Origin: Caballeronia catudaia
GTDB taxonomy: Bacteria; Pseudomonadota; Gammaproteobacteria; Burkholderiales; Burkholderiaceae
Assembly (NCBI RefSeq): GCF_001544755.2
Contig: NZ_FCOF02000006.1
Location: 62,001-126,000 of the forward strand
Direction of reading: 5' to 3'
Length of the DNA: 64,000 nucleotides
Under the pieces are notes generated by a model. It did not search any database. It saw only the letters and a list, made by a program, of their open reading frames with translations, and was not told where the DNA came from. A program made the position numbers and the translations under genes. Every line of letters starts with the position of its first letter. Within the stretch, counting starts at the first letter, position 1. Shown here piece after piece: positions 11,911-38,529 of this stretch.

Positions 11911-11999
11911 TTTTGGGGTTCGTTTGAGCTTCTATGGAACTTGCGGCCGTGTTGGTTTCCTTGTTTGCTCTGCCTGCTTTGGGCTTCTATGGAATCCTG

Positions 12000-12665
12000 T
12001 TTTCGTGCCGGTCTATTTGTGTTGCCCCTGTGCGGGGCGGCAGTCACTTTCTTTACACCGCTGCAAAGAAAGTAACCAAAGAAACAGCTATCCCCAGCCT
12101 AAGCATTCATGCCGGCCGCGGCACAGGCGATCGATAAGTGGTCCGGCAGTAGCGAGTGCCTCCAAAGGTCGAACCGGGCGTGGATCGCACACGGTCTGAC
12201 CAGCCATAACTCTACGCACACTGGTTCAGCACAAATGGCTCCGGCACAGCGCTACGCGCTGCCGCCGGGTCTGCAAGGGAAACCAACGGTAGGCAGGCAC
12301 ATGCAGTGAGATTGAGACGTCAGCAAGAAAACGCGCGCAGACCCGATTGACCGGTCGGCCGCGAAGCGGGCTGGAGCTATTGGTGCTGAACCGGTCAGTA
12401 GTGCGGCGCGATGTGACGGACCGTGCGCGATCCAAGCCGCGTGAGTATTGTGAGGGCACTCGCTACTGCCGGACCACGAGAGTAGTTCTGTGCCGCGGCC
12501 GGCATGAAGTGCTCAGGCTGGGGATAGCTGCTTTCTTTGCCTACTTTCTTTGCGTCGACCAGAGTTGGCGCTTTAGCGCTTACTCTGGTCCCGAGCAAAG
12601 AAAGTAGGTGCCGCCCCGCACAGGGGCAATGCTAATAAACCGACACGAATACGGGATCCGGCAAA
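12000..12665. repeat. Dispersed intergenic element A, imperfect inverted repeat (~660 bp)
   Basis: Left and right arms are imperfect reverse complements of each other. Each holds, from outside inward, a GTCTATT/AATAAAC edge, a GCCCC-TGTGC-GGGGC hairpin, an ACTTTCTTT...AAAGAAAGT inverted pair, CTATCCCCAGCCTAAGCA-type sequence, GCCGGCCGCGGCACA, and a GCAGTAGCGAGTGC block. The right ACTTTCTTT pair encloses an extra hairpin, GACCAGAGT...ACTCTGGTC; the left pair has only a short loop. No convincing ORF lies inside. Element B at 25222 is the same structure inverted. It fills the gap between xylB and the SorC regulator, whose start may lie just outside it. No transposase is present. Confidence 0.8.
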
Positions 12666-12724
12666 AACCAAAGCGAAAGCAACGAGCAAAGAGCAAAGAG
12701 CAAAAAAACCAAACCATACCCACA

Positions 12725-13672
12725 GTGCCCAAATCCACCGAAAAACTCGATCTCGCAACACGCGCAGCGTGGCTCTACTACGTCGCCGGCAACACCCAAA
12801 ACGAGATCGCCGAAAAGCTCCAGATCTCGCGCCCGGTGGCGCAGCGGCTCGTCGCCTTCGCGGTCGAAAAGAACCTCATCCGCGTGCGCGTCGATCACCG
12901 CATCGCGGATTGCCTGTCGCTCGCAAAAGCGCTCAGCGACCGCTACGGCCTCGCGATGTGCGAAGTCGTGCCCATCGACGGCGACGCGCCCGAACAAGTC
13001 GACCGCAAGCTCGCGGTGGCAGGCGCGCAGGTCATGGAGCGCTATCTGCTCGATGAGAAGCCGCTCGTCGTGTCGATCGGCAGCGGCCGCACGCTCAAGG
13101 CTTGCGTCGAGCAGATCGGGCAGATCGACCGGCCGCAGCATCGCTTCGTGTCGATGGTCGGCGCGATTGCTCAGGACGGCTCGTCGAACCGTTATGACGT
13201 GGCGCAGCAGCTATCGGAGAAAACCGGCGGCAAGCACTTCATGCTGCCCGCGCCGCTCATGGCCGACAGCGTCGCCGAGCGCGCGCAATGGGTCAATCAC
13301 CGGCTGTATCGCATCGTCGATGAACTCGCGCACCGAGCCGACGTGGCGTTCGTCGGCATCGGCAATGTGGGCATGAACTGCCCGCTGCACGAGGACGGCT
13401 TCATCACGAGCGCGGAAGTCGACGAGCTGGTGTCGGCGGGCGCGGTGGCCGAATGCCTCGGCCTGCCGATCGATGCCAACGGACGCCGCGTGCAGTCGAA
13501 AACCGGCGCGCGCGCGACGAGCCTCGCACTCGACTCGCCGCCCAAACGCCCGACGATCGGCTTCGCGGGCGGGCAGCGCAAGCGCAACGCGCTGATCGCG
13601 GCGTTGAACGGGCAATGGCTGTCGGGGCTCGTGACCGATGAGTTGTGCGCGAAGGCGGCGCTGGACGCGTGA
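12725..13672 (+). CDS. SorC/DeoR-family sugar-binding transcriptional regulator
   Basis: The protein has 315 residues. An N-terminal helix-turn-helix (about residues 20-45, GNTQNEIAEKLQISRPVAQRL) is followed by a SorC-type effector-binding domain with VVSIGSGRTLKACVEQI, MVGAIAQDGSSNRYDVAQQL and the VAFVGIGNVGMNCPLHEDGF block. These regulators bind a phosphorylated sugar or polyol and control sugar-alcohol operons. The GTG start at 12725 gives the family length; the in-frame ATG at 12608 lies inside the repeat element and would add a low-complexity Lys/Gln tail. Its probable targets are the dalD-xylB and ABC transporter/SDR genes, which share an operator-like motif (inference). Confidence 0.87.
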   Translation: MPKSTEKLDLATRAAWLYYVAGNTQNEIAEKLQISRPVAQRLVAFAVEKNLIRVRVDHRIADCLSLAKALSDRYGLAMCEVVPIDGDAPEQVDRKLAVAGAQVMERYLLDEKPLVVSIGSGRTLKACVEQIGQIDRPQHRFVSMVGAIAQDGSSNRYDVAQQLSEKTGGKHFMLPAPLMADSVAERAQWVNHRLYRIVDELAHRADVAFVGIGNVGMNCPLHEDGFITSAEVDELVSAGAVAECLGLPIDANGRRVQSKTGARATSLALDSPPKRPTIGFAGGQRKRNALIAALNGQWLSGLVTDELCAKAALDA

Positions 13673-13673
13673 T

Positions 13674-14555
13674 TCATTGCCGCTCGGCCAACAACCTCCG
13701 GCACGCCTCATAGAATCGCATGCCGAGTCGATATTCCGGTGAAGGCTCGGTCAGCGGATCGATCGCAAGCTGCAGGATGTCCTGCTCACTCAGATCCGCG
13801 TCGCCGGCAAACAGGAGTCGTCGAATACCGTTGCTGAGAAGTCCTTCCCGCTCCCCCAGATTCAAGGATTCGAGTTCCGCGTAAGCGATCGTGGATTCGT
13901 TTCTGAACTTCGGCGTGGCGAGAAACGGCACGGTGATCCTTGCCTGCAGTTTCCCGCGCGCGATCCACTCCTTGTACAACACATCCACTGCGATTTCACT
14001 CCGCTCGGCCGGGAACAATTCTCTGAGTGTCTGCTTCCCCTTCGGAGTGACGAGGTAAGACGCTGCGCAATAGGCGTAAATACCTTTCGCGTCCAGCAGA
14101 TTGACGCCGGAAATGCGGTGTCGATCCGCCTCTTCTCCCGCGGCTGCGCAACGTCCGCGCATCTGCTGCTCCGCAAGACTAAGGAGAAACGGAGCCTGAT
14201 GATTGAACGGACAGCAATCGAAGAACAACACGTCAGCATCCGCATTCCCATTGACGAAGGCGTCGATCACGCTCTCGTTGAACACTGTCGGAAATTGACG
14301 GCTGATCTCCACGTCGTCTTCGAGAATCAAGGTTGCAGAAAGCGGCGGCGACTGAAAGATCGCCTCCTCGTGCGAACGCCGGCAGGCCCAGACGCCGTTT
14401 GTCCCCGCGTTATCGAGTGGTCCTTGCGTAAGGCCATCTATCGCCGGGAAGCGCGTGATGCAGCCCTGATAGCCAAGCGCGCTCAATTGCGCCTCCATGC
14501 GTTCAAACCTGTCGCGGCTCGACGCCAGGTTGATGTAGTACCCGTCCAACCGCAT
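13674..14555 (-). CDS. Glycosyltransferase family 25 protein
   Basis: The protein has 293 residues. The N-terminal YYINLASSRDRFERMEAQL and the LILEDDVEISR motif (near residue 80, the DxD-like metal/nucleotide-sugar site) are typical of GT25 enzymes, which add galactose or similar sugars to lipopolysaccharide or glycoproteins. The region around CRRSHEEAI also fits. It has no signal peptide or membrane helix, so action at the cytoplasmic face of the inner membrane is expected. The coding sequence is somewhat less GC-rich than its neighbours. It converges on the SorC regulator gene with 1 bp between stop codons and interrupts the polyol cluster. Acceptor and donor are unknown. Confidence 0.8.
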   Translation of the reverse strand: MRLDGYYINLASSRDRFERMEAQLSALGYQGCITRFPAIDGLTQGPLDNAGTNGVWACRRSHEEAIFQSPPLSATLILEDDVEISRQFPTVFNESVIDAFVNGNADADVLFFDCCPFNHQAPFLLSLAEQQMRGRCAAAGEEADRHRISGVNLLDAKGIYAYCAASYLVTPKGKQTLRELFPAERSEIAVDVLYKEWIARGKLQARITVPFLATPKFRNESTIAYAELESLNLGEREGLLSNGIRRLLFAGDADLSEQDILQLAIDPLTEPSPEYRLGMRFYEACRRLLAERQ

Positions 14556-14702
14556 GCCTTATGTTCCTGTTGTCGTTCCCGTATTAAGGGAATTGAAAAG
14601 CAACATCGTAGTATCGACTTGGCTAATCAAGGATACGGCGATCCCATTTGAGAAAAAATTCCACACCGCCGTCATCGGTGCCGCCCCCGCGACACGGACT
14701 CA

Positions 14703-15554
14703 TCAATATCCGATTTCCGCCTCCACCTCCAGCCCAACCTCAAGCACGACACCCTCGCCACCCACGACGATCGCGTTCTTGCCGAACGTGAGCGCGCCGT
14801 CGAACTGATCGCTGCCGCGATACGCGCTCATCGTGTCGAGTGGTTCGTGCGGCCACGACGGATTTGGCGCGCCCGTGTCCTGATCGATCGACGGAATCGG
14901 GCAGCGCGTGCAAAGCTTCACGAGCCGCAATTGCGCCTCGCCGATGCGCATCTCCGCGACATAATCCTCCTCGTAGGCATCGAGTCCGCCGATCACGAGA
15001 TTCGGCCGGAAGCGATTCGCCGCGATGCCCGGCGCGCCCTTGATCGACAAGCGCGCGTTGAGATCGTCGAGCGATGACTGGCCAACCACCAGCAGCGGGA
15101 ACTGATCCGCGAAACGCGTGTGCGCGGAAAGCGGCGCGGTCCATTCGTCGCTGACATCGCGGCGTGCGGACGGTGCGAACCGCGCGAGGCGCGCTGGCAG
15201 GCCGAGGAACGCCGTGAACCATTGCGCCGTGTGCTCGCCGGTGTCGAGCGCATCGACGGTGTCGCGCCAGACGGTCGCGCGCATCGGCCGCGCATCCGCA
15301 AGCGCCTGGGCTTGCAAGGGCGTGCGCAGCGTCGGCATGCCGGGCGCATCGATGACGAGATCGTCGCCATCGAACGCGGTCTTGATCAACGCCATGCGCG
15401 AATGCGCGCGCTGCGTGAACATGCCGCCCTGCGCGTCGGTCACCATCCAGTGGCGGTCGTATTCGAGCCCCGTGTCGAAGAGCATCGCGCGGCGCAGCGA
15501 AATGCCCGCGCAAGACTTGATCGGATAGACGAAGAGTTCGTTCAGGACAGGCAT
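14703..15554 (-). CDS. MOSC-domain protein
   Basis: This 283-residue protein has an N-terminal MOSC beta-barrel (MPVLNELFVYPIKSCAGISL, YDRHWMVTDAQGGMFTQR) and a C-terminal MOSC domain with the conserved Cys region KLCTRCPIPSIDQDTG near residues 210-225. Relatives (YcbX, mARC) bind molybdenum cofactor and reduce N-hydroxylated compounds; the ferredoxin domain found in YcbX is absent here. The start at 15554 corresponds to the family's usual beginning; an in-frame ATG at 15584 is possible. It lies downstream of the ABC transporter operon but behind a terminator hairpin, so it probably has its own promoter. Confidence 0.87.
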   Translation of the reverse strand: MPVLNELFVYPIKSCAGISLRRAMLFDTGLEYDRHWMVTDAQGGMFTQRAHSRMALIKTAFDGDDLVIDAPGMPTLRTPLQAQALADARPMRATVWRDTVDALDTGEHTAQWFTAFLGLPARLARFAPSARRDVSDEWTAPLSAHTRFADQFPLLVVGQSSLDDLNARLSIKGAPGIAANRFRPNLVIGGLDAYEEDYVAEMRIGEAQLRLVKLCTRCPIPSIDQDTGAPNPSWPHEPLDTMSAYRGSDQFDGALTFGKNAIVVGGEGVVLEVGLEVEAEIGY

Positions 15555-15634
15555 GGCGATAGCGTGTGGGAGCGCGCCGGCCATCGGGTGTGGCCAGTCG
15601 GAACCGCGATTATCGCGCGTATACAACGTTCAAG

Positions 15635-15663
15635 AAAAAAGCGCCGCTCTCCCGAACGGCGCT
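15635..15663 (-). terminator. Intrinsic terminator of the polyol ABC operon
   Basis: AGCGCCG (15640-15646) pairs with CGGCGCT (15657-15663), and on the minus strand the stem is followed by a six-T tract. It lies about 20 bp after the ATPase gene stop. Confidence 0.85.
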
Positions 15664-15684
15664 GTGCATGCCATCAGACGCACA

Positions 15685-16821
15685 TCAGGCCGCCGTCGCA
15701 TGCTCCCGCAGCCACGAATCGACGACCTTGCGCGTGAACGCCTGCCCTTGCGCGTCGAACAGATGGCAATGATCCGGCGCTGCGCCGAGCTTCAGCTTCT
15801 CCCCGCGCGCATGCTTTTCCAGCGGCGGAATGCGCGAGATCAATCCATCCGGCGCGACCTCGGTTTCGGCATAGAGATAAGCCGCATCCCCGAGCGTTTC
15901 GACCGTCATCGCCGAAGCGGACAAACCATACTCGCCCGCCTCCGGTGAATTCGGCTGCAAGTGCTCCGGACGCACGCCGACCGTCACCGCATCGCCCGGC
16001 TTCGCATTGCCCGGCAACACGCCGACGAGCTGCGTCTCGCCCGTCGCATACTTCACGAGCACGCCGTCGTTCTGCACCGCGGCCACCGTTCCCGACATGA
16101 AGTTCATTTTCGGCGAACCGATGAAACCCGCCACGAACCGGTTCGCCGGCGCGTGATACAGCGTGTTCGGCGTGCCGACCTGCTCGATATTCCCCGCCGA
16201 CAACACCACGATCTTGTCCGCGAGCGTCATTGCTTCGACCTGATCGTGCGTCACGTAGATCATCGTCGTCTTGAGATCGTCGTGCAGGCGCGCGAATTCG
16301 AGGCGCATCTTCACGCGCAATGCGGCGTCGAGGTTCGAAAGCGGTTCGTCGAAGAGAAACACCTTCGGCTTGCGCGTGATCGCGCGGCCGATCGCCACGC
16401 GCTGACGCTGTCCGCCGGAGAGCTGCTTCGGCTTGCGATCGAGCAGATGGTCGATGTGCAAGACCTTCGCGGCATTCTTCACCGCAGCGTCGATCGCGGG
16501 CTTCTTCTCGCCCGCGAGCTTGAGGCCGAACGCCATGTTGTCGTAGAGCGTCATGTGCGGATAGAGCGCGTACGACTGGAACACCATCGCGATGCCGCGC
16601 TTCGCGGGCGGCAACTCGTTCACGCGCGCGCTGTCGATCATCAGTTCGCCTCCGCTGATGTCTTCCAGACCGGCGATCATGCGCATCAACGTCGACTTGC
16701 CGCAGCCCGACGGGCCCACGAACACGACGAACTCGCCGTCGTCGATATCGAGGTTGATGTTGCGCATCACCTCGGTTTCTTCGTAACGCTTGCTGATGTT
16801 GCGCAGTGTCAGGCTAGCCAT
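15685..16821 (-). CDS. Polyol/sugar ABC transporter ATP-binding protein (UgpC/SmoK type)
   Basis: This 378-residue ATPase belongs to the CUT1 carbohydrate importer class. Walker A is GPSGCGKST (about 36-44), the ABC signature LSGGQRQR (about 134-141), Walker B VFLFDEP, the switch histidine is in YVTHDQ, and the C-terminal TOBE/MalK-like domain contains VGVRPEHL. It energises the two permeases encoded upstream. It is the last gene of the operon (binding protein, two permeases, HAD phosphatase, ATPase) and is followed by a clear terminator. Gene order and the neighbouring polyol dehydrogenase suggest a mannitol/sorbitol/arabitol importer of the SmoEFGK type; the substrate was not tested. Confidence 0.93.
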   Translation of the reverse strand: MASLTLRNISKRYEETEVMRNINLDIDDGEFVVFVGPSGCGKSTLMRMIAGLEDISGGELMIDSARVNELPPAKRGIAMVFQSYALYPHMTLYDNMAFGLKLAGEKKPAIDAAVKNAAKVLHIDHLLDRKPKQLSGGQRQRVAIGRAITRKPKVFLFDEPLSNLDAALRVKMRLEFARLHDDLKTTMIYVTHDQVEAMTLADKIVVLSAGNIEQVGTPNTLYHAPANRFVAGFIGSPKMNFMSGTVAAVQNDGVLVKYATGETQLVGVLPGNAKPGDAVTVGVRPEHLQPNSPEAGEYGLSASAMTVETLGDAAYLYAETEVAPDGLISRIPPLEKHARGEKLKLGAAPDHCHLFDAQGQAFTRKVVDSWLREHATAA

Positions 16822-16869
16822 GATGTGTGTCTCCTATGCTTTCGGCGCGGTGTCGAACCGCGTCCGGCG

Positions 16870-17583
16870 CTATCTGATTTCGAACGTCGCGTTTTGCAGC
16901 CATTGATCGACCAGGAGAGGCAGGCGCGTCATGTCATCGAATACGAGCTGCGCGCCCGCTCGCTCCAGCGCGCCGATCTGCCCTTCCGTTGCATGGCCGC
17001 CGCCGATGAAGCCGAGCACCGGCATGCCCGCCGCCTTCGCCGCCGTGACGCCCGTCACGCTGTCCTCGACGACGAGGCAGCGCAGCGGATCGATGCGCAT
17101 CGCGCGCGCCGCCGCGAGGTACACGTCCGGCGCGGGCTTCGGGTTTTCGACCATGTCCGCGCAGAAACGCCGCTCGCCGAAGAAGCGCACGAGGCCGGTG
17201 CGTTGCAGCACGGCATCGACATACGTCGAAAAGCTGTTGCTCGCGCACGCCTTCGTGAAAGGCACGGCCGCGAGCGCCTCGGCGATGCCCTGCACCGCCG
17301 GCGCCTGCATCGCCGCTGCTTCGACAGAGCGCCGGATCACGACGACCTGATCGTGCGTCAGCGTGCGGCCGACCGTATCGGCGGCGCTCGCGAGCACCGC
17401 CTCGATGCGCAGGCCGAGCAGCGGCATCACGACCGGCTCGACATCGACGCCTGGCCACACCGCCTGCAACTCCGCGACGAGCATGCGCGCCGCCACCGCT
17501 TCGCTGTCGATGAGCACGCCGTCGCAATCGCAGATCAGCAGACGATCTTCGAGATTGGCCCGTTCCAGTGGAGTGAGATTCAC
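16870..17583 (-). CDS. HAD-superfamily phosphatase/phosphomutase
   Basis: The protein has 237 residues. HAD motif I is CDCDGVLIDSEA (about residues 18-29, nucleophile and acid/base aspartates), motif II is the Ser/Thr region KACASNSFSTY, and motif III/IV is PAPDVYLAA...CLVVEDSVTG. A helical cap (subfamily I) separates motifs I and II. It acts on a small phosphorylated metabolite, probably a sugar phosphate. It sits between the second permease gene and the ATPase gene of the polyol ABC operon, with spacings of 10 and 48 bp, so a role in polyol-phosphate metabolism or repair is likely but unproven. Confidence 0.85.
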   Translation of the reverse strand: MNLTPLERANLEDRLLICDCDGVLIDSEAVAARMLVAELQAVWPGVDVEPVVMPLLGLRIEAVLASAADTVGRTLTHDQVVVIRRSVEAAAMQAPAVQGIAEALAAVPFTKACASNSFSTYVDAVLQRTGLVRFFGERRFCADMVENPKPAPDVYLAAARAMRIDPLRCLVVEDSVTGVTAAKAAGMPVLGFIGGGHATEGQIGALERAGAQLVFDDMTRLPLLVDQWLQNATFEIR

Positions 17584-17593
17584 GCTCGCATCC

Positions 17594-18445
17594 TCACTTC
17601 ACCGCGCCAAACGTGAGACCGCGCACGAGCTGCTTCTGCGAGACCCAGCCGACGATCAGGATCGGCGCGACCGCCAGCAGCGAAGCCGCCGAGAGCTTCG
17701 CCCAGAACAGGCCTTCCGGACTCGAATACGACGCGATGAACACGGTAAGCGGCGCCGCGTTCGAGCTCGACAGATTGATGCTCCAGAACGCCTCGTTCCA
17801 CGACAGGATGATGAGCAGCAGGCCCGTCGATGCAAGGCCGGGCAGCGCCATCGGCATCAGCAGATAGACGATCTCCTGCCACGTCGTCGCGCCGTCGATG
17901 CGGCCCGCTTCGAGAATGTCCTTCGGCACTTCGTTGAAGTACGTGTAGGCCATCCACACCGCGATCGGCAAGTTGATCAGCGTGTACACGATGACGAGAC
18001 CCGAAACCGTATCGAGCAGGCCCGTGTTCTTCCACAGCAGATAGATCGGCACGAGCACGCCGACCGACGGCATCATCTTCGTGGAAAGCATCCACAGCAG
18101 GACCGACTGCGTTTTCCTGGTCGGGAAGAAGGCCATCGCGTAGGCGCACGGCACCGCCAGAATCAGGCAGAGCAGCGTGACGCCGACTGAAATCAGCACC
18201 GAATTCCACGCGAAGCCGAAGTAGTTGCTGCGCGCGAACACTTCCTTGAAGCTATCGAGCGTCGGCGTGAAGAACAGCGACGACGAATACGCCTGCTGCT
18301 CGGTCTTGAACGCGGTGATCGTCATCCAGAAGATCGGGAAGAACAGCAGGATCGACACGATCCACGCAACGATGCCCGGCACGATGTTCTTGACGTGATC
18401 GAGCGCGGAGGCTCGCGGCGGTGCGGAAACCGATTGCGTGCTCAT
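17594..18445 (-). CDS. Polyol/sugar ABC transporter permease (MalG/SmoG type)
   Basis: This 283-residue inner-membrane protein has six predicted helices. The EAA motif EVPKDILEAGRIDGATTWQE, the cytoplasmic loop that docks on the ATPase, is seen near residues 190-210. The ATG at 18445 overlaps the stop of the preceding permease as ATGA, fixing the start. A longer in-frame reading to 19258 merely runs antiparallel through the other permease and was discarded. It forms a heterodimeric channel with the product of 18442-19380. Confidence 0.93.
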   Translation of the reverse strand: MSTQSVSAPPRASALDHVKNIVPGIVAWIVSILLFFPIFWMTITAFKTEQQAYSSSLFFTPTLDSFKEVFARSNYFGFAWNSVLISVGVTLLCLILAVPCAYAMAFFPTRKTQSVLLWMLSTKMMPSVGVLVPIYLLWKNTGLLDTVSGLVIVYTLINLPIAVWMAYTYFNEVPKDILEAGRIDGATTWQEIVYLLMPMALPGLASTGLLLIILSWNEAFWSINLSSSNAAPLTVFIASYSSPEGLFWAKLSAASLLAVAPILIVGWVSQKQLVRGLTFGAVK

Positions 18446-19380
18446 GACTCGTACTCCCCTTTGAGGTTCTTCGCGAGCATTCTCACGAGGAAGAACGCGA
18501 CGATGTTGGCGAGAATCACCGCAAGAATGCCGCCCGCCGATGCGAGACCGACGTCGAACTGCTGCAGACCCAGCGCATAGATCAGGTACGACAGGTTGGT
18601 CGTCGCGGTGCCGGGGCCGCCGCCGGTCGTCGTGTAGATTTCCGCGAAGATCGACAGCAGGAAGATGGTTTCCATCATCACGACGACTGCGATCGCGCGT
18701 TTCAGATGCGGCAGCGTGATGAAGAAGAACATCGCGAAGGGACCTGCGCCATCGATGCGCGCCGCTTCCTTCTGTTCCTGATCGAGCGACTGAATCGCCG
18801 TGAACAGAATCAGGAACGCGAACGGCAGCCACTGCCACGCGACGATGACGATCACCGCGAAGAGCGGATACTCGGCGAACCAGTCGATCGGCTGCATGCC
18901 CATCGAGCGCATGAGTCCCGCGATCAGGCCGTACACCGGATGCAGGATCATGTTCTTCCAGATGAGCGCGGAGACCGTCGGCATCACGAAGAACGGCGCG
19001 ATCACGAGCAGCCGCGCGATGCCCTGCCCGATGAACTTGCGATCGAACAGCACGGCGAGCAGCGTGCCGCCTACCACGGTGATGACCAGCACCGAAATGA
19101 TCAGCGTCAGCGTATGGCCGATGGATGGCCCGAACGCCGGATCGGTGACGAGGAACTCGAAGTTGTCGAAGCCCGCGAAGCCTTTTACGTCCGGATTCAG
19201 CAGGTTGTAGCGCGAGAACGAAAACCAGATCGTCATCGCGAGCGGAATGGCCATCCACAGGAAAAGCAGTCCCGTCGATGGCGAGATCAGCCAGCGCACC
19301 GACTTCGCGCGCCGCTTGTCACGCTCGGCGGCGGACTCCTCCAGATGATGATCGGTGATGGGGGGATTCAGTTGACTCAT
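18442..19380 (-). CDS. Polyol/sugar ABC transporter permease (MalF/SmoF type)
   Basis: This 312-residue inner-membrane protein has six or more hydrophobic segments, the first at about residues 30-52. The EAA loop reads DQEQKEAARIDGAGPFAMFF. The N-terminal cytoplasmic tail is long and charged (ESAAERDKRRAK). It is coupled to the next permease gene by a 4-bp overlap and lies 63 bp after the solute-binding protein gene. It belongs to the CUT1 importers. Confidence 0.93.
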   Translation of the reverse strand: MSQLNPPITDHHLEESAAERDKRRAKSVRWLISPSTGLLFLWMAIPLAMTIWFSFSRYNLLNPDVKGFAGFDNFEFLVTDPAFGPSIGHTLTLIISVLVITVVGGTLLAVLFDRKFIGQGIARLLVIAPFFVMPTVSALIWKNMILHPVYGLIAGLMRSMGMQPIDWFAEYPLFAVIVIVAWQWLPFAFLILFTAIQSLDQEQKEAARIDGAGPFAMFFFITLPHLKRAIAVVVMMETIFLLSIFAEIYTTTGGGPGTATTNLSYLIYALGLQQFDVGLASAGGILAVILANIVAFFLVRMLAKNLKGEYES

Positions 19381-19443
19381 CGTGACACCTCTCGATGATG
19401 ATGCTGTCGGGCCGCATCGAAAGACACGGCCCGCGTACCGACG

Positions 19444-20811
19444 TTACTTCTGATAACCGGCCTGCTTGACCGCGCGATCCGCCGCCGCATTGGCCGCCTT
19501 CAGCGCGTTGTCGACGCTCGTCTGCCCCGCGACGACACCCGCGATCGACTGACCGACGACCGTGCCGAACGACTGGAACTCCGGAATGCCGACGAACTGG
19601 ACGCCGGAGTACGGCACCTTCTTGAGCGTCGCGTCGTTCGGATCGGCGGTTTCGATCGCCTTCAAAACGAAGTCGCCGAACGGCGCGGCCTGCTTGTACT
19701 CGGGGCGCGCGTAGGTCGATTTGCGCGTGCCCGGCGGCACGGACGCCCAGCCTTCATCCTTGCCGACCATCTCGATATATTCCTTCGAGGTCGCCCACGC
19801 GGCGAACTTCTTGGCCGCTTCCTGCTGCTTCGACGTCTTCGGGATCGCGAGCGACCACGACCACAGCCAGTGCGAGCCCTTCGGCGTGACGGCGATGGGC
19901 GCGGCCGCAAAGCCGATCTTGTCCGACACCTGCGATTGCGCCTTGTTGTAGAGGATGCCCGCGGCGACGGTCGCGTCGATCCACATCGCGCACTTGCCGG
20001 ACGACATCAGCGTGAGGTTCTCGTTGAAGCCGTTCGAGCTCGCTCCCGGCGGGCCGTCGTTCTTCAGGAGATCCGCGTAGAAGCCGACCGCCTTCTTCCA
20101 TTCGGGCGTATCGAGCTGCGCCTGCCACTTCTCGTTGAACCACTCGCCGCCGAACGTGTTCACGACCGTCGTTACGAACGCCATGTTCTCGCCCCAGCCC
20201 GCCTTGCCGCGCAAACAGATGCCGTACTGGCCTTTGGATTTGTCGGTGAGCTTGTCGGCGAACTGCTTGATCTGATCGTAGTTCGGCTGATCGGGCATCT
20301 TCAGGCCCGCGGCCTGGAACAGGTCCTTGCGGTAATACGTCATCGAGCTTTCGACGTAGAACGGCAGCGCGAACAGCGTGCCGTTGTACGAGAGGCCATC
20401 GCGCGCGGTCTTCACGACATCGTCGAGATCGTAGTTGGCGGGCAGACCGGTCATCGGCGAGAGCCAGCCGCGCTTGCCCCATTGCGGCGCCTCGTAGGTG
20501 CCGATCGTGATCACGTCGAACTGGCCGCTGTTCGTGGTGATGTCGGTGGTCGCGCGCTGGCGCAGCACGTTCTCTTCGAGAATCACCCATTTCAGCTGGA
20601 TGTCCGGATTCGCCTTCTCGAAGGCCGGCGCGAGCTTTTTCAGCTCGATCATGTCCGGGTTGTTCAACGTGGCGATGGTGATGGTCGCGGCATGCGCCGA
20701 CATCGGCACGAGCGCGGCGGCGGCCAGCGCGGCGGAAAACGCGGTGGCGGCGCGACGTGCCCGCGGTTGTGCCCGAACGATGCGTTGAGTGCGCTTTTGA
20801 GTCGGTTTCAT
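19444..20811 (-). CDS. Polyol/sugar ABC transporter periplasmic binding protein
   Basis: This 455-residue family 1 extracellular solute-binding protein has a long, Arg-rich signal sequence ending at about residue 41 (SAHAATITIATLNNPDM). The mature protein captures the substrate in the periplasm. SGQFDVITIGTYEAPQWGKRGW and FNENLTLMSSGKCAMWIDAT are typical of SmoE/MtlE-like mannitol/sorbitol binding proteins. The start at 20811 gives the basic n-region directly; an ATG at 20865 would add 18 residues before it. It is separated by 262 bp from the SDR dehydrogenase upstream, so the transporter may have its own promoter there, although no operator copy is visible in that gap. Confidence 0.92.
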   Translation of the reverse strand: MKPTQKRTQRIVRAQPRARRAATAFSAALAAAALVPMSAHAATITIATLNNPDMIELKKLAPAFEKANPDIQLKWVILEENVLRQRATTDITTNSGQFDVITIGTYEAPQWGKRGWLSPMTGLPANYDLDDVVKTARDGLSYNGTLFALPFYVESSMTYYRKDLFQAAGLKMPDQPNYDQIKQFADKLTDKSKGQYGICLRGKAGWGENMAFVTTVVNTFGGEWFNEKWQAQLDTPEWKKAVGFYADLLKNDGPPGASSNGFNENLTLMSSGKCAMWIDATVAAGILYNKAQSQVSDKIGFAAAPIAVTPKGSHWLWSWSLAIPKTSKQQEAAKKFAAWATSKEYIEMVGKDEGWASVPPGTRKSTYARPEYKQAAPFGDFVLKAIETADPNDATLKKVPYSGVQFVGIPEFQSFGTVVGQSIAGVVAGQTSVDNALKAANAAADRAVKQAGYQK

Positions 20812-21073
20812 GCTGGTTCGTCTCCTTTTTGTTGGCACGGGCGCGAGCGGTGTCTCTCGTGACAAGACCGCGCGTGCCGTGTATGCCGCTGCCTGCTTTC
20901 GAGGGTGCGCGATCGAAAAATCGCGTGGTTGCCGTGTTTATCCTTGTGCAGCGCCTGCCATCACCGTAGTGGACCTTTCGTCCTTTGCAGCATCGCCGCA
21001 TTCGACGCGACGCCGTTTCACTATAGACGGTGCTTTCCGCGCTTCAAGCCGCATGCAGCGCACAAGCGGTGCA

Positions 21074-21847
21074 TCAACTCATCCAGTTGCCGCCGTCGAC
21101 GTTGATCGTCTGCGCGGTGATGTAATCCGCATCCGATGACGCCAGAAAAAGCGCCGCGCCCGTCAGGTCGGCGGGCAAGCCCATGCGCCCGAGCGGCACT
21201 TCCTCGCCGACGAGCCGTTTCTTCTCGCCGAGCGGACGATTCTCGTAGCGCGCGAAAAGTGCGTCGACCTCGTTCCACATGGGTGTATCGACGACGCCCG
21301 GCGCGATACCGTTTACGTTGATGCGCTCTTTCGCGAGCGCGAGCGCCGCCGATTGCGTGTAGCTGATGACCGCCGCCTTGGTCGCGCAGTAATGCGACAC
21401 GAGCGCTTCGCCGCGCCGCCCGGCCTGCGATGACATATTGATGATCTTGCCGCCGCGCCCCTGCTGGACCATGCGCTTAGCGACGGCCTGCATCAGAAAG
21501 AACATGCCTTTGACGTTCACCGCGAAGAGGCGGTCGTAGACGTCCCAGGATTCGTCGAGGATCGGGCGCATGTCGAAGAGCGCCGCGTTGTTGAAGAGAA
21601 TGTCGATGCCGCCGAAACGCTCGATGGCGCGCGCCACGATGCGTTCGATATCGTCGCGGCGCGTAACGTCGGCCTGCAGCGCGAGCACGTGCGCCGAGAC
21701 GTCGGCGAAGCGCTGCGCCATGCCGTGCTCATCCTTAACGTCGACGATGACGACTCGCGCGCCTTCCTCCAGATAGCGCCGCGCGACAGCTTCTCCGATG
21801 CCGCTCGCCGCGCCCGTGATGATGGCGACCTTCTCTTTCAGTCTCAC
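21074..21847 (-). CDS. SDR polyol dehydrogenase (sorbitol/L-iditol 2-dehydrogenase type)
   Basis: This 257-residue classical short-chain dehydrogenase has the cofactor motif TGAASGIG (11-18), DV in VIVDV indicating NAD preference, NNAA, and the catalytic Ser (MSSQAG) with YxxxK (YCATK). Overall it resembles bacterial sorbitol dehydrogenase SmoS/PolS, which oxidises sorbitol to fructose or related polyols to ketoses. It is transcribed toward the ABC transporter genes and is the likely first gene of the polyol uptake operon. A motif nearly identical to the dalD upstream operator lies about 55 bp before its ATG. Confidence 0.88.
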   Translation of the reverse strand: MRLKEKVAIITGAASGIGEAVARRYLEEGARVVIVDVKDEHGMAQRFADVSAHVLALQADVTRRDDIERIVARAIERFGGIDILFNNAALFDMRPILDESWDVYDRLFAVNVKGMFFLMQAVAKRMVQQGRGGKIINMSSQAGRRGEALVSHYCATKAAVISYTQSAALALAKERINVNGIAPGVVDTPMWNEVDALFARYENRPLGEKKRLVGEEVPLGRMGLPADLTGAALFLASSDADYITAQTINVDGGNWMS

Positions 21848-21898
21848 CGATGTCTCCGAGTTTTTGCCTCGCTCTCTCGCAGTGAGCGAACGCTCCGC

Positions 21899-21934
21899 GG
21901 ATGAACAATTGCTCGTTGTTTGATCGAATGATCG
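21899..21934 (-). promoter_or_regulatory. Candidate polyol operator, copy 2 (upstream of SDR dehydrogenase)
   Basis: On the minus strand the block reads GATCATTCGATCA, then a short variable piece, then CGAGCAATTGTTCATCC. This matches copy 1 (8756-8795) in order, spacing and orientation to the gene. Its dyad is imperfect (GAGCA...TGTTC) where copy 1 is perfect. Confidence 0.68.
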
Positions 21935-22092
21935 GCGCTGCGCGTGATCGTGTCAAGGAATCGGCACAGTTTTCGATGCTGCAACGCGCAATCGTCTGGA
22001 ACCTCGGGAAAACCCGTCTGGCAAGGCGCAGCCGAGCAAGCAACGTTCCGTGCCGATGAAGAAAGACGCGCCTTAGGGCGTGCACGTCGATG

Positions 22093-22107
22093 TGATACGT
22101 TATATCA
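22093..22107 (+). promoter_or_regulatory. Candidate Zur box upstream of zur-znuACB
   Basis: TGATACGTTATATCA is a dyad with 5-bp arms (TGATA/TATCA) and an AT-rich core, like Zur-type operators. It lies about 50 bp upstream of the zur start in an otherwise GC-rich gap, consistent with zinc-dependent autoregulation of the operon. Confidence 0.65.
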
Positions 22108-22158
22108 TCGCCAAATCGTCCTACCTTGCCGAGGCCGCGTCACCGTGGCCGTCATGAC

Positions 22159-22617
22159 ATGACCGCATCCGTCGAAACCATGCTGGCCCGCGCCGAAGCC
22201 CTCTCCGCCGAACGCGGTGTCGCGCTCACGCCGCTGCGCCGCCAGGTGTACGAACTTGTGCTGAAGGCACACAAGCCAATCGGCGCCTACGACCTCATCG
22301 ACGCGATGGAGCCGCAGCGCGGCGCGCGCGTGCCACCGACCACCGTGTATCGCGCACTCGACTTTCTGGTCGAAAACGGCTTCGTGCATCGCATCGAATC
22401 GAAGAACGCGTTCATCGCGTGCTGCGACGCGGGCAAGCCGCACGAGAGCCAGTTCCTCATCTGCGACGAATGCGGCAATACGCTCGAAATCCAGGGCCGC
22501 GAGCTTGCGTCGTCGCTGTCCGCGAGCCCGCCCGCGCACGGCTTTCAGGTGCATCACCAGGTCGTCGAACTGAGCGGGCTGTGCGCCGATTGTCAGAAGA
22601 AGCATCACGGTGTCTGA
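22159..22617 (+). CDS. zur: Fur-family zinc uptake regulator
   Basis: This 152-residue Fur-superfamily repressor has an N-terminal winged helix (LTPLRRQVYELVLKAHKPIGAYDL, then VPPTTVYRALDFLVENGFVH). A dimerisation/metal domain follows with CC...H (ACCDAGKPHESQF) and the structural zinc cysteines CDEC and CADC. Zn-bound Zur represses zinc import. The start at 22159 gives the family length and follows the dyad at 22093-22107. The stop is 34 bp before znuA, so the regulator is the first gene of the operon it probably controls. Zur rather than Fur is inferred from context and from cysteine content. Confidence 0.92.
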   Translation: MTASVETMLARAEALSAERGVALTPLRRQVYELVLKAHKPIGAYDLIDAMEPQRGARVPPTTVYRALDFLVENGFVHRIESKNAFIACCDAGKPHESQFLICDECGNTLEIQGRELASSLSASPPAHGFQVHHQVVELSGLCADCQKKHHGV

Positions 22618-22651
22618 GCGCGTCATCCATCACCATCACAAAAGGAATTCA

Positions 22652-23533
22652 ATGAAACTCGCGCATCTCCTGACCTGCTTCGCCCTCGCGCTCGGCTTTT
22701 GCGACGTGGCTTCAGCGCAATCGGCGCGCGTGCCGGTCGTCGCCGCAGAGAATTTTTATGGCGATGTCATCCGTCAGCTCGGCGGCGATCACGTGCAGGT
22801 GACGAGCATCCTGAACAATCCGGACCAGGACCCGCATCTCTTCGAAGCGAGCCCGAAGACCGCGCGTTTATTGCAGCATGCGGCGCTCGTCGTCTATAAC
22901 GGCGCGGACTACGATCCGTGGATGGAGAAGCTGCTCGCGGTATCGCGAAGCAACGACAAGCGCACGGTGATCGTCGCGGCGCAGCTCGTCGGCAAGAAGG
23001 CCGGCGACAATCCGCATCTCTGGTACGACCCGTCGACGATGCCCGCCGTCGCGAAAGCGGTGAGCGCGTATTTGTCGGGCGCGGACCCGTCGCACAAGAG
23101 CGATTACGACGCGCGCCTCGCGGCCTTTCTCGACACGCTGAAGCCCATCGACGCGAGCATTGCGCAGATGAAGGCGCACTACAAGGGCGTGCCGGTCACG
23201 GCGACCGAGCCGGTGTTCGGCTACATGGCCGATGCGATCGGCTTCGAGATGCGCAATCAGCGCTTCCAGATGGCGGAGATGAACGAGACCGAGCCGAGCG
23301 CCGGCGATATTGCCGCGTTCGAAAAAGACCTGCGCGAGCGCCGCGTGCACGTGCTTATCTATAACAGCCAGGCGACGGGCGCGCTGACGAAGCGTCTGCT
23401 CGACGTCGCGAAGGACGCGCATGTGCCGAGCGTCAGCGTGACGGAGACCTTGCCCGCGAAGAAGACGTATCAGCAATGGATGCAGTCGCAGCTCGACGCG
23501 CTTGCGGGCGCGCTGCAAGGATGGCAACGATGA
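22652..23533 (+). CDS. znuA: Zinc ABC transporter substrate-binding protein
   Basis: This 293-residue cluster A-I metal-binding protein has a signal peptide (residues 1-22, cleavage after ASA). Metal ligands appear as His in QDPHLFEASP and His in DNPHLWYDPSTM. The third position, usually His in HDAFGYF-like segments, reads TEPVFGYMADA, so Glu may replace it; the fourth acidic residue is in VSVTETLP. The His-rich loop of enterobacterial ZnuA is absent. It delivers Zn2+ to the ZnuB channel. The start at 22652 has AAAGGA upstream. The stop overlaps the znuC start as ATGA. Confidence 0.9.
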   Translation: MKLAHLLTCFALALGFCDVASAQSARVPVVAAENFYGDVIRQLGGDHVQVTSILNNPDQDPHLFEASPKTARLLQHAALVVYNGADYDPWMEKLLAVSRSNDKRTVIVAAQLVGKKAGDNPHLWYDPSTMPAVAKAVSAYLSGADPSHKSDYDARLAAFLDTLKPIDASIAQMKAHYKGVPVTATEPVFGYMADAIGFEMRNQRFQMAEMNETEPSAGDIAAFEKDLRERRVHVLIYNSQATGALTKRLLDVAKDAHVPSVSVTETLPAKKTYQQWMQSQLDALAGALQGWQR

Positions 23534-24411
23534 ACGCCGCTGCAACGACGCAAGCCGCGCTCGAAGTCGACCGTGTGACGCTCGCGCTCGGCGGCCGCGA
23601 GATTCTCAACGATACGAGCTTCACCGTGCGCAACGGCGAGTTCATCGGCGTGCTCGGGCCGAACGGCGCGGGCAAGACCACGCTGATGCGCGCGCTGCTC
23701 GGGCTCGTGCCGCTGAAGAGCGGATCGATACGCGTGAATGGCGAGGCGGTCGTGCGCGGTAACGCGTCGATCGGCTATATGCCTCAGATCCGCACGGGGC
23801 TCGCCAACCGCCGCGTGCTCGGCCGCGATTTCGTCGCGATGGCCGCGGACGGGCATCACTGGGGGCTGCCGCATCGCAATGCGCGCATTCGCGCGGATGT
23901 CGAGCGCGTGCTGGAACTTGTCGGCGCGCATCAGCTGGCGTCGCGTCCGCTGTCGGAACTGTCGGGCGGCGAGCGCCAGCGGCTTCTCCTCGCGCAATGT
24001 CTGCTCGGCAATCCGCGTCTGCTGCTGCTCGACGAACCGCTCATCAGTCTCGATCCGCGGCATCAGACGGGCGTCGTCGAGCTTGTGCGGCGCGTGCAGC
24101 GCGAGTTGAACATCACCGTGCTGTTTTCTGCGCACGAGCTCAATCCGCTTCTGAATTCCCTCGACCGCGTGCTTTATCTTGGCAGCGGGAGGGCGGCGCT
24201 CGGCACCGTCGACGAGGTCATTTCGAAGCCGGTGCTCTCGCGGCTGTACGGCTCGCCCATCGACGTGATGCGCGTGAATGGCCGCATCTTCGTGATGTCG
24301 GGCGATGTCGAGATCGACAAGCTCGATCACGCGCACGAAGAAGGCGACGAACACGAGCATGAGCATGACCACGGTCATGAGCACGATCACCACCACAGTC
24401 ACGAGAAGTAA
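23530..24411 (+). CDS. znuC: Zinc ABC transporter ATPase with His-rich tail
   Basis: This 293-residue ABC ATPase has Walker A GPNGAGKTT, signature LSGGERQRL, Walker B LLLLDEPLISLD and the switch His in FSAHELN. The last about 30 residues are dominated by His, Asp and Glu (EHEHEHDHGHEHDHHHSHEK), a probable zinc-binding tail on the cytoplasmic side; it may buffer or sense imported zinc (inference). The start at 23530 overlaps the znuA stop; an ATG at 23521 is possible. znuB follows after 2 bp. Confidence 0.93.
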   Translation: MNAAATTQAALEVDRVTLALGGREILNDTSFTVRNGEFIGVLGPNGAGKTTLMRALLGLVPLKSGSIRVNGEAVVRGNASIGYMPQIRTGLANRRVLGRDFVAMAADGHHWGLPHRNARIRADVERVLELVGAHQLASRPLSELSGGERQRLLLAQCLLGNPRLLLLDEPLISLDPRHQTGVVELVRRVQRELNITVLFSAHELNPLLNSLDRVLYLGSGRAALGTVDEVISKPVLSRLYGSPIDVMRVNGRIFVMSGDVEIDKLDHAHEEGDEHEHEHDHGHEHDHHHSHEK

Positions 24412-24413
24412 CA

Positions 24414-25202
24414 ATGTTCGAATACGACTTCATGGTGAACGCATTCGCGGCGTCGGGAATCGTCGCGGTGCTGGCGGGGATCGTCGGGTACTTTCTCGTG
24501 CTGCGCGGGCAGACTTTCGCGGGTCACGCGCTATCGCACGTCGGCTTCACGGGTGCGACCGGCGCGGTGCTGCTCGGCATGCCGCCGCTTTGGGGCATGG
24601 TCGGCTTTACGCTCGCGGCGGGCGTGGGCATGGGCGCGTTGGGCGAGCGTCTGTCGGGCCGCGATGTCGCGATCGGCGTGATTCTTTCGCTTTCGCTCGG
24701 GTTTGGGCTGCTGTTTCTGCACTTCTTCACCGCGTACGCGACGCAGGCTACGGCGCTGTTATTCGGCAACGTGCTCGGCGTGAGTCATGACACGCTGGTC
24801 GTGCTGGCGGGGCTTGCGCTCGTGAGCCTCGGGGCGTTGGCGTTCATCATGCGGCCGCTTTTGTTCGCGTCGTTGCAGCCGGAGCTTGCCGAAGCCAAGG
24901 GCGTGTCGCTGCGGCTCGTGTCGGTGCTGTTTCTCGCGATCACCGCGCTCGCGGTTGCGGCTTGTACGCAGATCGTTGGGGTGTTGCTGGTTTTTGCGTT
25001 GATGGTCGGGCCGGCGGCGGCGGCGCAGAACGTGACGACACGTTTGTCGTCGGGGTTGATGCTCGCGGCGCTGTTTGCGCTCGGGCAGGCGTGGGTTGGA
25101 CTTACGCTCGCCTACTACACCGACTGGCCGACGAGTTTCTGGATCACCATGCTTGCCGCGCTTGTGTATGGCGCGAGTTTGCTTGGGCGGCGGGGGCATT
25201 GA
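24414..25202 (+). CDS. znuB: Zinc ABC transporter permease
   Basis: This 262-residue ABC-3 family inner-membrane channel has about eight hydrophobic segments. GQTFAGHALSHVGFTGATGA near residue 30 and VGVLLVFALMVGPAAAAQN near residue 190 are hallmark regions of ZnuB/MntB permeases. It partners ZnuC and ZnuA to import Zn2+. It is the last gene of the zur-znuA-znuC-znuB operon and is followed after 20 bp by the repeat element B, whose hairpins may end or protect the transcript. Confidence 0.94.
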   Translation: MFEYDFMVNAFAASGIVAVLAGIVGYFLVLRGQTFAGHALSHVGFTGATGAVLLGMPPLWGMVGFTLAAGVGMGALGERLSGRDVAIGVILSLSLGFGLLFLHFFTAYATQATALLFGNVLGVSHDTLVVLAGLALVSLGALAFIMRPLLFASLQPELAEAKGVSLRLVSVLFLAITALAVAACTQIVGVLLVFALMVGPAAAAQNVTTRLSSGLMLAALFALGQAWVGLTLAYYTDWPTSFWITMLAALVYGASLLGRRGH

Positions 25203-25221
25203 AGGTTTTTTTGCTTCTGCT

Positions 25222-25893
25222 TTCGCCGGATCCCGTGTTCGTGTCGGTTTATTAGCTTCGCCCCTGTGCGGGGCGGCAGTCACTTTCTTTGCTCGGGACC
25301 AGAGTAAGCGCTAAAGCGCCAACTCTGGTCGACGCAAAGAAAGTAACCAAAGAAACAGCTATCCCCAGCCTAAGCACTTCATGCCGGCCGCGGCACAGAA
25401 CTACTCTCGTGGTCCGGCAGTAGCGAGTGCCCTCACAAAACTCACCGGGCTTGGATCGCGCACGGTCCGTCACATCGCACCGCACTACTGACTGGTTCGG
25501 CAACTCAAGCTCCGGCCCGCTTCGCGGCCGATCGGTCAATCGGGTCTGCGCGTGCTTCTTTGCTTAAATCTCTATCTCACTGCACACGCACAAGTTGGTT
25601 CGCCCTGCATACCCAACGGCAGCGCGTAGCGCTGTGCCGGAACTCTCTCGTGCTGAACCTGCACGCCCAACGTTCCCGCACGGCAGACCGTGCGCGATCC
25701 AAGCCCCGTTAGACCTTCGAGAACACTCGCTACTCCGGGGGCCATTAGATCAATCGCCTGTGCCGCGGCCGGTGTGAAGTGCTTAGGCTGGGGACAGCTG
25801 CTTTCTTTGCCTACTTTCTTTGCAGCAGCAAAGAAAGTAGGTGCCGCCCCGCATAGGGGCAGTGCTAATAGACCGACACGAAATCAGGATTCC
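25222..25893. repeat. Dispersed intergenic element B, imperfect inverted repeat (~670 bp)
   Basis: Its left arm (25222-25560) is nearly identical to the reverse complement of the right arm of element A, including the GACCAGAGT...ACTCTGGTC hairpin set inside ACTTTCTTTGC/GCAAAGAAAGT. Its right arm (25650-25893) matches the reverse complement of A's left arm. A and B are therefore the same structure in opposite orientation. Small ORFs across it (for example a peptide ending CGAAVTFFARDQSKR) look like translated repeat, not genes. It fills the gap between convergent znuB and the formylglutathione hydrolase gene. Confidence 0.8.
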
Positions 25894-37317: not shown

Positions 37318-38529
37318 TTACGCGCCGGCGGCGGAGGCGGCCTGCGCACCCGACGCCTGAGCCGCCGCCGTTGCCGGAGCGGCAGGCGCAGCGGGCAGAT
37401 GCGCGGGCACCGCCTTCACCGGCATGCCCGGCCGCACCTTGTCGATGCCCTCGACGATCACGCGGTCACCCGGATTCAGGCCGCTGTCGACGACCCAGTT
37501 CTGGCCATAGGTGCCCGAGGTCACGAGCGGACGCATCGCCACCTTGCCGTCCTTGTCGACGACCATCGCGAGCGCCGTGCCCTTCTGGTCGTGCGTCACG
37601 CCCTGCACCGGCACGACGAGCGCTTCCGGATTCACCCCTTCCTCGATGTGCGCGCGCACGAACATGCCCGGCAGGAGGACACGGTCCGCGTTGCGGAAGA
37701 TCGCCCGCACGGTGACGGAGCCGGTGGACTTGTCCACGGTCACATCGCTGAATTGCAGCTTGCCCTGCTCGGAATAGACGCGGCCGTCCTCGAGAATCAG
37801 CGTGACCTTCGCGGCGTTCGGGCCGTTCGTCGACAGACGCCCTTCCTGGATCTGACGCCGCAGCTTCAGACCGTCGAGGCTCGATTGCGTGAGATCGACA
37901 TACATCGGATCGAGTTGCTGCACGGTGACCATCAGCGTGGCCTGCGCGCCCTGCACGTAAGCGCCCGGCGTCACCTGCGAGATGCCCGCCTGGCCCGTCA
38001 CGGGAGACGTCACGTCGGTGTAGCCGAGATTGATCTGCGCGGTGTCGATCGCGGCCTTGGCCGATGCGACGTCGGCTTCGGCCTGGCCCATCGCCGCGAC
38101 CGCGTTGTCGTAGTCCTGCTTGCTGACCGCGTTCGACGCGACCAGCACCTTGTAACGCTCCGCCTGCGCGGTCGTCGAAAGCAGATTGGCGTGCGCTTTC
38201 GCGTACGACGCCTTCGCGGTGTTCAACTGCGCGATGAACGGCGCGGGGTCGATCTTGTACAGACGCTGGCCTTGCTTGACGACGCTGCCCTCGGTGAACT
38301 CGCGGCGCAGCACGATGCCATCGACGCGCGCGCGCACCTGCGCATCGAGGAACGCGCTCGTGCGGCCCGTCAGTTCCGCGGTGACCGGCACGGCGGCCGG
38401 TTGAAGTGTGACGACGCCGACTTCCGGCGTGTGTTGCGCCATCGGGGGATGCTTCTCCCCGCAGCCCGCCGCAAGCAGGGCGGCCGCCGTGACACCGACG
38501 AGGCGGTATGGAATCCGTTTGAGATACAT
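37318..38529 (-). CDS. RND efflux periplasmic adaptor (MFP), system 1
   Basis: This 403-residue periplasmic lipoprotein adaptor has lipobox LLAAGC (Cys near 20), a beta-barrel/lipoyl start [21 protein letters not shown] and a coiled-coil hairpin of about 60 residues (residues 95-160). A lipoyl return, [13 protein letters not shown], and an Ala-rich C-terminal tail follow. It bridges pump and outer-membrane factor. The ATG at 38529 begins the signal peptide directly; an upstream ATG at 38715 would add 62 unrelated residues. It is the first gene of operon 1, which has no regulator gene next to it. Confidence 0.94.

What the first reader, a model, noticed from the sequence alone, without database searches (positions are those of the whole stretch)
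12000..25893. Two ~660-bp inverted-repeat elements face each other across 13 kb
Elements A (12000-12665) and B (25222-25893) are the same structure in opposite orientation, and each is itself an imperfect inverted repeat. A's right arm and the reverse complement of B's left arm are almost identical over about 300 bp, including a GACCAGAGT...ACTCTGGTC hairpin nested inside ACTTTCTTTGC/GCAAAGAAAGT. Only one of the two arms of each element carries this nested hairpin. No coding gene is inside. The pair could be mobile, could act as large RNA or DNA hairpins, and could allow inversion of the 13-kb interval holding the SorC regulator, polyol transporter and zinc operon.
Basis: partly seen in the sequence, partly recalled or inferred. 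Interest (0 to 1): 0.72.

Follow-up and report, generated by a model that had tools for sequence, protein, structure and literature searches.

The report
Dispersed nested-hairpin DNA repeat family
The two facing elements are two copies of a non-coding, hairpin-within-hairpin DNA repeat scattered between genes of this soil bacterium and its relatives; its sites tend to stay put while its sequence is swapped among copies, and a jumping gene lands in its hairpin loop.

Summary
A (about 11991-12661) and B (about 25227-25893) are one structure in opposite orientation, each a nested imperfect palindrome (DNA-fold z -25.7 and -21.0). They are not a special pair: 28 long copies were extracted from this genome, and the family occurs across the genus (Caballeronia by its named hits). 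Where sites are shared with C. arvi, flanks are 93-97% identical, yet the occupants are hardly more alike than unrelated copies (86.8% vs 85.6%). Two sites shared by two near-complete assemblies agree. Cores sometimes lie inverted between unchanged flanks, and other species carry collapsed forms or other subfamilies at the same sites. I read this as fixed sites whose content turns over by ectopic recombination. The inner hairpin also occurs in Xanthomonadaceae and other distant bacteria. An IS481-family insertion sequence sits in its loop at 18 of 23 distinct junctions read. None of the 29 testable site-A loci shows the proposed 13-kb inversion. Arms do not match within elements, so a selected RNA hairpin is not supported. 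What first spread the elements is unknown. Closest known: REP/BIME/REPIN repeats, but no RAYT gene lies beside this repeat.

The parts
11991..12661 (+). Element A, full nested palindrome
   Evidence: edges approximate
12024..12038 (+). A left outer GC hairpin GCCCCTGTGCGGGGC
12046..12073 (+). A left inner hairpin ACTTTCTTT..GCAAAGAAAGT
12543..12605 (+). A right inner hairpin ACTTTCTTTGC..GCAAAGAAAGT with the nested hairpin 12557-12590
12613..12627 (+). A right outer GC hairpin GCCCCGCACAGGGGC
25227..25893 (-). Element B, full nested palindrome, opposite orientation to A
   Evidence: edges approximate
25260..25274 (+). B left outer GC hairpin
25282..25344 (+). B left inner hairpin with the nested hairpin 25297-25330
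25813..25838 (+). B right inner hairpin without the nested hairpin
25846..25860 (+). B right outer GC hairpin
25181..25289 (-). Rfam RF02421 (Bp1_684) match, which is the outer end of B
   Evidence: 49.2 bits, gathering 44

Best explanation
A and B are two copies of a dispersed, non-coding palindromic DNA repeat that works like a very long REP/BIME. Each copy is an end module (outer GC hairpin, then an inner hairpin of nearly fixed sequence), a core of about 400 bp, and the mirror-image end module. Shown: copies lie between genes and mostly just behind stop codons; sites can be shared between species; the occupant sequence there is exchanged, sometimes flipped or collapsed; and the loop of the inner hairpin is a preferred landing point of an IS481-family insertion sequence. 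Inferred: hairpins extrude or stall replication and are cut (for example by SbcCD), and repair from another copy converts arms and cores; recombination between an element's own inverted arms flips the core; deletion between repeats within the hairpins leaves the nested small forms. Also inferred: a first dispersal by an unknown transposase. The facing layout of A and B over 13 kb has no special role.
For: 121 matching pieces and 28 long copies extracted in this genome. 12 of 28 own sites coincide with sites of the 27 C. arvi copies fetched, flanks 93-97% identical. At 11 scored sites the same-site elements average 86.8% identity, other cross-genome pairs 85.6%; same-site ranks run from 2 to 17 of 26; longest shared exact runs are no longer at the same site (51 vs 54.5 bp), while other pairs share exact runs up to 140 bp. 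Two sites shared by the 5- and 7-contig assemblies rank 8 and 12 of 25. Core flipped at site B and clearly at 2 of 34 usable rows. Collapsed nested forms and other subfamilies at the same sites. Arms of one element are no more alike than arms of different elements. 20 of 26 gene-facing edges lie within 100 bp of a stop codon. IS481-family insertion in the loop at 18 of 23 distinct junctions.
Against: A small vertical signal remains (permutation p 0.0002), and same-site copies rank first in 4 of 34 usable rows. No exchange was watched directly and no break was measured; SbcCD is a guess. The 16 own sites not matched in C. arvi were not examined there. Both genomes of the main comparison are draft assemblies. 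Recurrent insertion at favoured sites could mimic conversion, and the other-subfamily elements at site A (L065, L070) fit that as well.
Confidence: 0.6

Rival explanations
1. A REPIN-like family moved by a RAYT (Y1 transposase): the end module (GTNAC beside a GC hairpin) is a REP, and the chromosomal PF01797 protein mobilises it.
For: All 10 hairpin-carrying genomes tested have a PF01797 protein; one in this genome. The arrangement of two inverted hairpin units resembles a REPIN.
Against: PF01797 is found in 123 of 185 class genomes anyway. None of 18 PF01797 loci has the inner hairpin within about 1.5 kb, whereas REPs lie beside RAYTs in the REPIN paper's genomes (PMC3116915, passages read). 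Elements are 520-660 bp, not about 100 bp.
Confidence: 0.15
2. A non-autonomous transposon (MITE-like) whose transposase is elsewhere; shared sites reflect repeated insertion at favoured places.
For: Terminal inverted repeats, many copies, copies behind genes, different subfamilies at one site.
Against: No target duplication or clean empty site was seen; patchwork exact runs up to 139 bp between copies about 86% alike fit exchange better.
Confidence: 0.14
3. A structured RNA or 3' regulatory hairpin kept for its transcript.
For: Very stable folds; Rfam RF02421 matches B's outer end; alifold gives 22 of 151 pairs with two or more Watson-Crick types; slight GT over AC excess, outer 298:261, core 266:204.
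Against: Arms do not match within elements: 0.831 vs 0.843, p 0.98, n 20; one block of four (110-150) goes the other way, p 0.05. The core's orientation varies. Flanking T-runs lie on the wrong side for intrinsic terminators (read).
Confidence: 0.08
4. The pair A/B is a 13-kb inversion switch.
For: Two inverted copies, 85% identical, 13 kb apart.
Against: Normal junction in 29 of 29 testable site-A loci; many similar copies elsewhere.
Confidence: 0.02

Closest known systems
REP sequences and BIMEs
   Same: Dispersed intergenic hairpins, inverted units with linkers, placement behind genes, landing sites for insertion sequences (Tobes and Pareja 2006, PMC1525189, passages read, names IS3, IS110, IS4, IS256 and IS5 families)
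   Different: Far longer (520-660 bp), nested hairpins, an inner hairpin nearly identical in distant lineages, and the insertion sequence here is IS481 family
REPINs with RAYT transposases (PMC3116915, passages read)
   Same: Two inverted hairpin units forming one large hairpin; dispersed between genes
   Different: No RAYT beside the repeat (0 of 18 loci); core of about 400 bp
Rfam RF02421 Bp1_684
   Same: B's outer end matches above the gathering score; A's below it
   Different: The model covers an end plus flank; the element is a DNA palindrome of which this is one edge
Rfam RF01731 TwoAYGGAY
   Same: In one Thiotrichales genome (L200) two facing matches lie within about 310 bp of the same inner hairpin
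   Different: Not found in A or B at E up to 1, nor in five other hairpin loci at E up to 0.5

Membership tests
REP/BIME-type repeat | many dispersed copies between genes | tested here: met
REP/BIME-type repeat | short palindromic unit of about 20-40 nt in alternating orientation | tested here: inconclusive
   outer and inner hairpins are such units, but they sit in a fixed long element
REP/BIME-type repeat | binding of gyrase, IHF or polymerase I | not testable with these tools
   needs protein assays
REPIN | repeat unit beside a RAYT gene | tested here: not met
   0 of 18 PF01797 loci
REPIN | two inverted hairpin units forming one hairpin | tested here: met
   the compact 175-bp form L068
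MITE | terminal inverted repeats | tested here: met
MITE | target-site duplication and clean empty site | tested here: inconclusive
   no clean pair found
Invertible 13-kb segment | inverted junction in some relative | tested here: not met
   0 of 29 testable site-A loci
Structured RNA family | compensatory changes between paired arms | tested here: not met
   mild contrary signals
Structured RNA family | expressed transcript | not testable with these tools
   no RNA-seq

The most novel reading that the evidence does not exclude
The inner hairpin GTYACTTTCTTTGC-loop-GCAAAGAAAGTNACCAAAGAAA, preceded by a GC hairpin whose sequence varies but whose stem is kept, marks one undescribed superfamily of long palindromic DNA elements spanning Burkholderiales, Xanthomonadales and other bacteria, recognised by a shared but unidentified recombination enzyme. 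In Caballeronia it forms a network of fixed landing sites whose cassette-like cores are swapped and flipped.
Probability: 0.35. Interest if true: 0.8.

Novelty: new variant of a known kind. Interest (0 to 1): 0.58.

Why it matters
Repeats of this kind are usually thought of as genus-bound (recalled), yet this hairpin recurs nearly letter for letter in distant lineages with different flanks. The family can keep its addresses between species while its content is exchanged, so it offers a natural assay of ectopic recombination at palindromes. The loop-targeting IS481-family element gives a concrete, testable transposase-hairpin pair. It also accounts for 10 contig ends of this assembly and suggests that an Rfam sRNA entry is one end of a DNA repeat.

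Tried and rejected
Coding content: only mechanical ORFs under 100 aa. RNA hairpin by covariation: alifold counts looked favourable (GU 350 vs AC 114), but alifold prefers GU pairs; with strand-neutral pairing the excess shrank to 298:261 and 266:204, and within-element matching was absent. RAYT partnership: 10 of 10 carriers have PF01797, but so do 123 of 185 class genomes, and 0 of 18 loci are adjacent. Phage carriage: no match in the phage collection and 3 stretches in viral contigs, one of them beside the IS. Annotated gene context: the six plasmid stretches asked for carry no listed genes there, so a codon model was used. A first gene-context script was too crude and was replaced. A first scan missed minus-strand loci and was redone. 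Literature: five sequence strings gave 0 papers; topic searches listed nothing that by title or abstract describes this element; subscription papers are not held. PMC10987360, PMC3521395, PMC2864571 and PMC4333381 were searched for passages only; PMC2817692 was seen in a listing only.

Rows dropped before counts: truncated or odd copies (L011, L012, L013, L017, L021, L025, L028, L030; also L039); own copies of 560 bp or less and C. arvi copies of 545 bp or less; duplicate loci L001, L003, L024, L029, L031. Of 36 rows, two (with L025, flanks 69%) are spurious, leaving 34. In one search a 600-bp limit left 12 of 16 copies with both neighbours called; the four dropped are one tandem, one convergent and two divergent. 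In one search the loci were picked by me; those from L219 on were judged by flanking sequence, as their titles were not shown.

Full report
OBSERVATION. A (11991-12661) and B (25227-25893) are confirmed nested palindromes in opposite orientation. Reading inward, each arm has an end around GGATCC/GGAATCC and TTCGTGTCGGT, an outer GC hairpin (GCCCCTGTGCGGGGC), an inner hairpin (ACTTTCTTTGC..GCAAAGAAAGT), then conserved blocks. The nested GACCAGAGT hairpin sits in the loop of the inner hairpin in one arm of A and of B; across the family it is in the left arm, the right arm, both or neither.

FAMILY. Searching the window's genome with A gave 121 pieces; 28 long copies, A and B included and some cut by contig ends, were extracted from the loci fetched. 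With B, 14 of 21 genomes in the relatives draw matched, 2 of 9 genera, and 67 of 150 in the family draw, 8 of 25 genera; the listed matches outside the home genus are short, mainly the end modules. Named plasmid records with a match are Caballeronia 11, Paraburkholderia 9, Burkholderia 3. The close relative G007 has a contig whose length equals that of a Caballeronia arvi LMG 29317 contig, so I call it C. arvi by inference. Compact forms of about 170 bp also occur in this genome, apparently right behind genes, at C120 and C142.

SITES. I looked at site A (upstream of the SorC gene; matched in 56 of 58 genus genomes) and site B (downstream of znuB; 57 of 58) in the best 30 loci each. Site A: 10 full elements of this family, 2 two-armed elements of other subfamilies (L065, L070), one 175-bp form (L068), four forms of about 95 bp (L053, L055, L056, L058), one of about 40 bp (L046), 1 cut by a contig end, 11 with none recognised. 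Site B: 7 full, 4 partial (two cut by contig ends), 2 short (L081, L088), 17 with none recognised. The short forms are the outer hairpins joined at GCCCC/GGGGC, or at the inner hairpin, as expected from deletion between short direct repeats within the hairpins (inference).

REPLACEMENT AT FIXED SITES. 12 of 28 own sites match sites of the 27 C. arvi copies fetched, some by one flank only because of contig ends; the other 16 sites were not examined in C. arvi. Flanks are 93-97% identical. At the 11 sites long enough to score, same-site elements average 86.8% identity against 85.6% for other pairs between the genomes, 86.3% within this genome and 85.9% within C. arvi; each same-site copy ranks between 2 and 17 of 26. 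Longest exact runs average 51 bp at the same site and 54.5 bp otherwise, with runs up to 139-140 bp between other copies. A small vertical signal remains (permutation p 0.0002). Against a draft-assembly artefact: the 5- and 7-contig assemblies G001 and G011 share two sites, with ranks 8 and 12 of 25. Over all 34 usable same-site rows the same-site copy ranks first in 4. Core flips: in 1 of 12 pairs, site B (same orientation 0.799, opposite 0.844; arms in place); the opposite orientation scores higher in 4 of 34 rows, clearly in two: L385/L023 (0.726 vs 0.827) and L400/L028 (0.781 vs 0.857).

NOT AN RNA PAIRING SIGNAL. Left and right arms of one element are no more alike than arms of different elements (0.831 vs 0.843, n 20, p 0.98); of four blocks one goes the other way (p 0.05). 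Mismatch classes are nearly strand-symmetric, with a mild GT excess. The palindrome therefore seems to persist because all arms belong to one exchanging pool rather than through compensatory change within copies. The outer GC hairpin, however, keeps a stem with changing sequence across lineages: 33 of 42 with at least 5 pairs, 19.6 expected from mononucleotide shuffles, 11 of 40 upstream windows.

PLACE. With a codon model, 20 of 26 edges that follow a gene lie within 100 bp of its stop codon (median 38). Of 12 copies with both neighbours within 600 bp, 9 are tandem, 3 convergent and 0 divergent, against 56, 8 and 22 in background gaps of 60 bp or more; without the 600-bp limit it is 10, 4 and 2 of 16.

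CROSS-LINEAGE HAIRPIN. The exact 22-mer GCAAAGAAAGTAACCAAAGAAA was found in 118 stretches, a capped scan, including Xanthomonas, Lysobacter, Pseudoxanthomonas, Stenotrophobium, Marinobacterium, Hydrogenophilus, Thiotrichales, Niastella, Ignavibacteriae and Selenomonadales records. 156 of 166 matches have the other half of the hairpin, and 100 of 128 with enough sequence have a mirror copy within 1 kb; many of these are Caballeronia. A 39-bp two-sided pattern hit 4 of 274 genomes in the class draw and 4 of 299 in the phylum draw, own included in both, so it is sparse; the reversed control pattern hit 0. Distant single records, especially MAGs, could be binning errors. The Hydrogenophilus (L175) and G556 (L282) copies are themselves two-armed.

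INSERTION SEQUENCE IN THE LOOP. The IS end TGTATAGACCGGNGACAT occurs 63 times in 5 of 7 genomes searched. In the 30 loci fetched I read 23 distinct junctions; 18 are in the loop of the inner hairpin and 5 are not. Three of the four two-sided copies checked by script (all three in G011) are flanked by the same 6 bp, the loop plus its closing pair; the fourth (G012) joins a nested-hairpin half to an inner-hairpin half; a fifth (L376) shows the same 6 bp when its two printed junctions are read by eye. In this genome 10 of 14 junctions read, of 16 present, are in the loop, each within about 80 bp of a contig end. The IS is 1278-1282 bp and its transposase, read from a frame cut at its start, scores 224.6 bits to NF033577, IS481 family, cut-off 224. 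The junctions came from loci fetched for the repeat and are biased; the 18 of 23 come from a search for the IS end, though only 30 of 63 ends were fetched.

VERDICT. A REP/BIME-like, very long nested palindromic repeat family with sites often kept, content exchanged and a loop-targeting insertion sequence; a new variant of a known kind. How it first spread is open.

Noticed in passing
window 38249-38418 and 44878-45050, minus strand: Two Rfam RF02836 (Bcj14) sRNA matches, 98.3 and 129.8 bits, near ORFs of 1059 and 1061 aa.
   Followed up: no
L331 322-613 (G012) and L333 (G097): The nested hairpin also stands alone as tandem arrays: 5.9 copies of a 49-bp unit in G012 and three copies in G097 read by eye.
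   Followed up: partly
own genome contigs C47, C49, C74, C98, C100, C108, C115, C117, C142, C153: Ten contig ends stop at an IS481-family end inserted in the hairpin loop, which accounts for those assembly breaks.
   Followed up: yes
L200 6633-6940 (Thiotrichales MAG): Two facing TwoAYGGAY RNA matches just inside the same inner hairpin.
   Followed up: partly
own contig C84 about 68893-68935 against C. arvi C140 from 124757: A site with only a decayed right end in this genome where C. arvi keeps an element end interrupted by the IS.
   Followed up: partly
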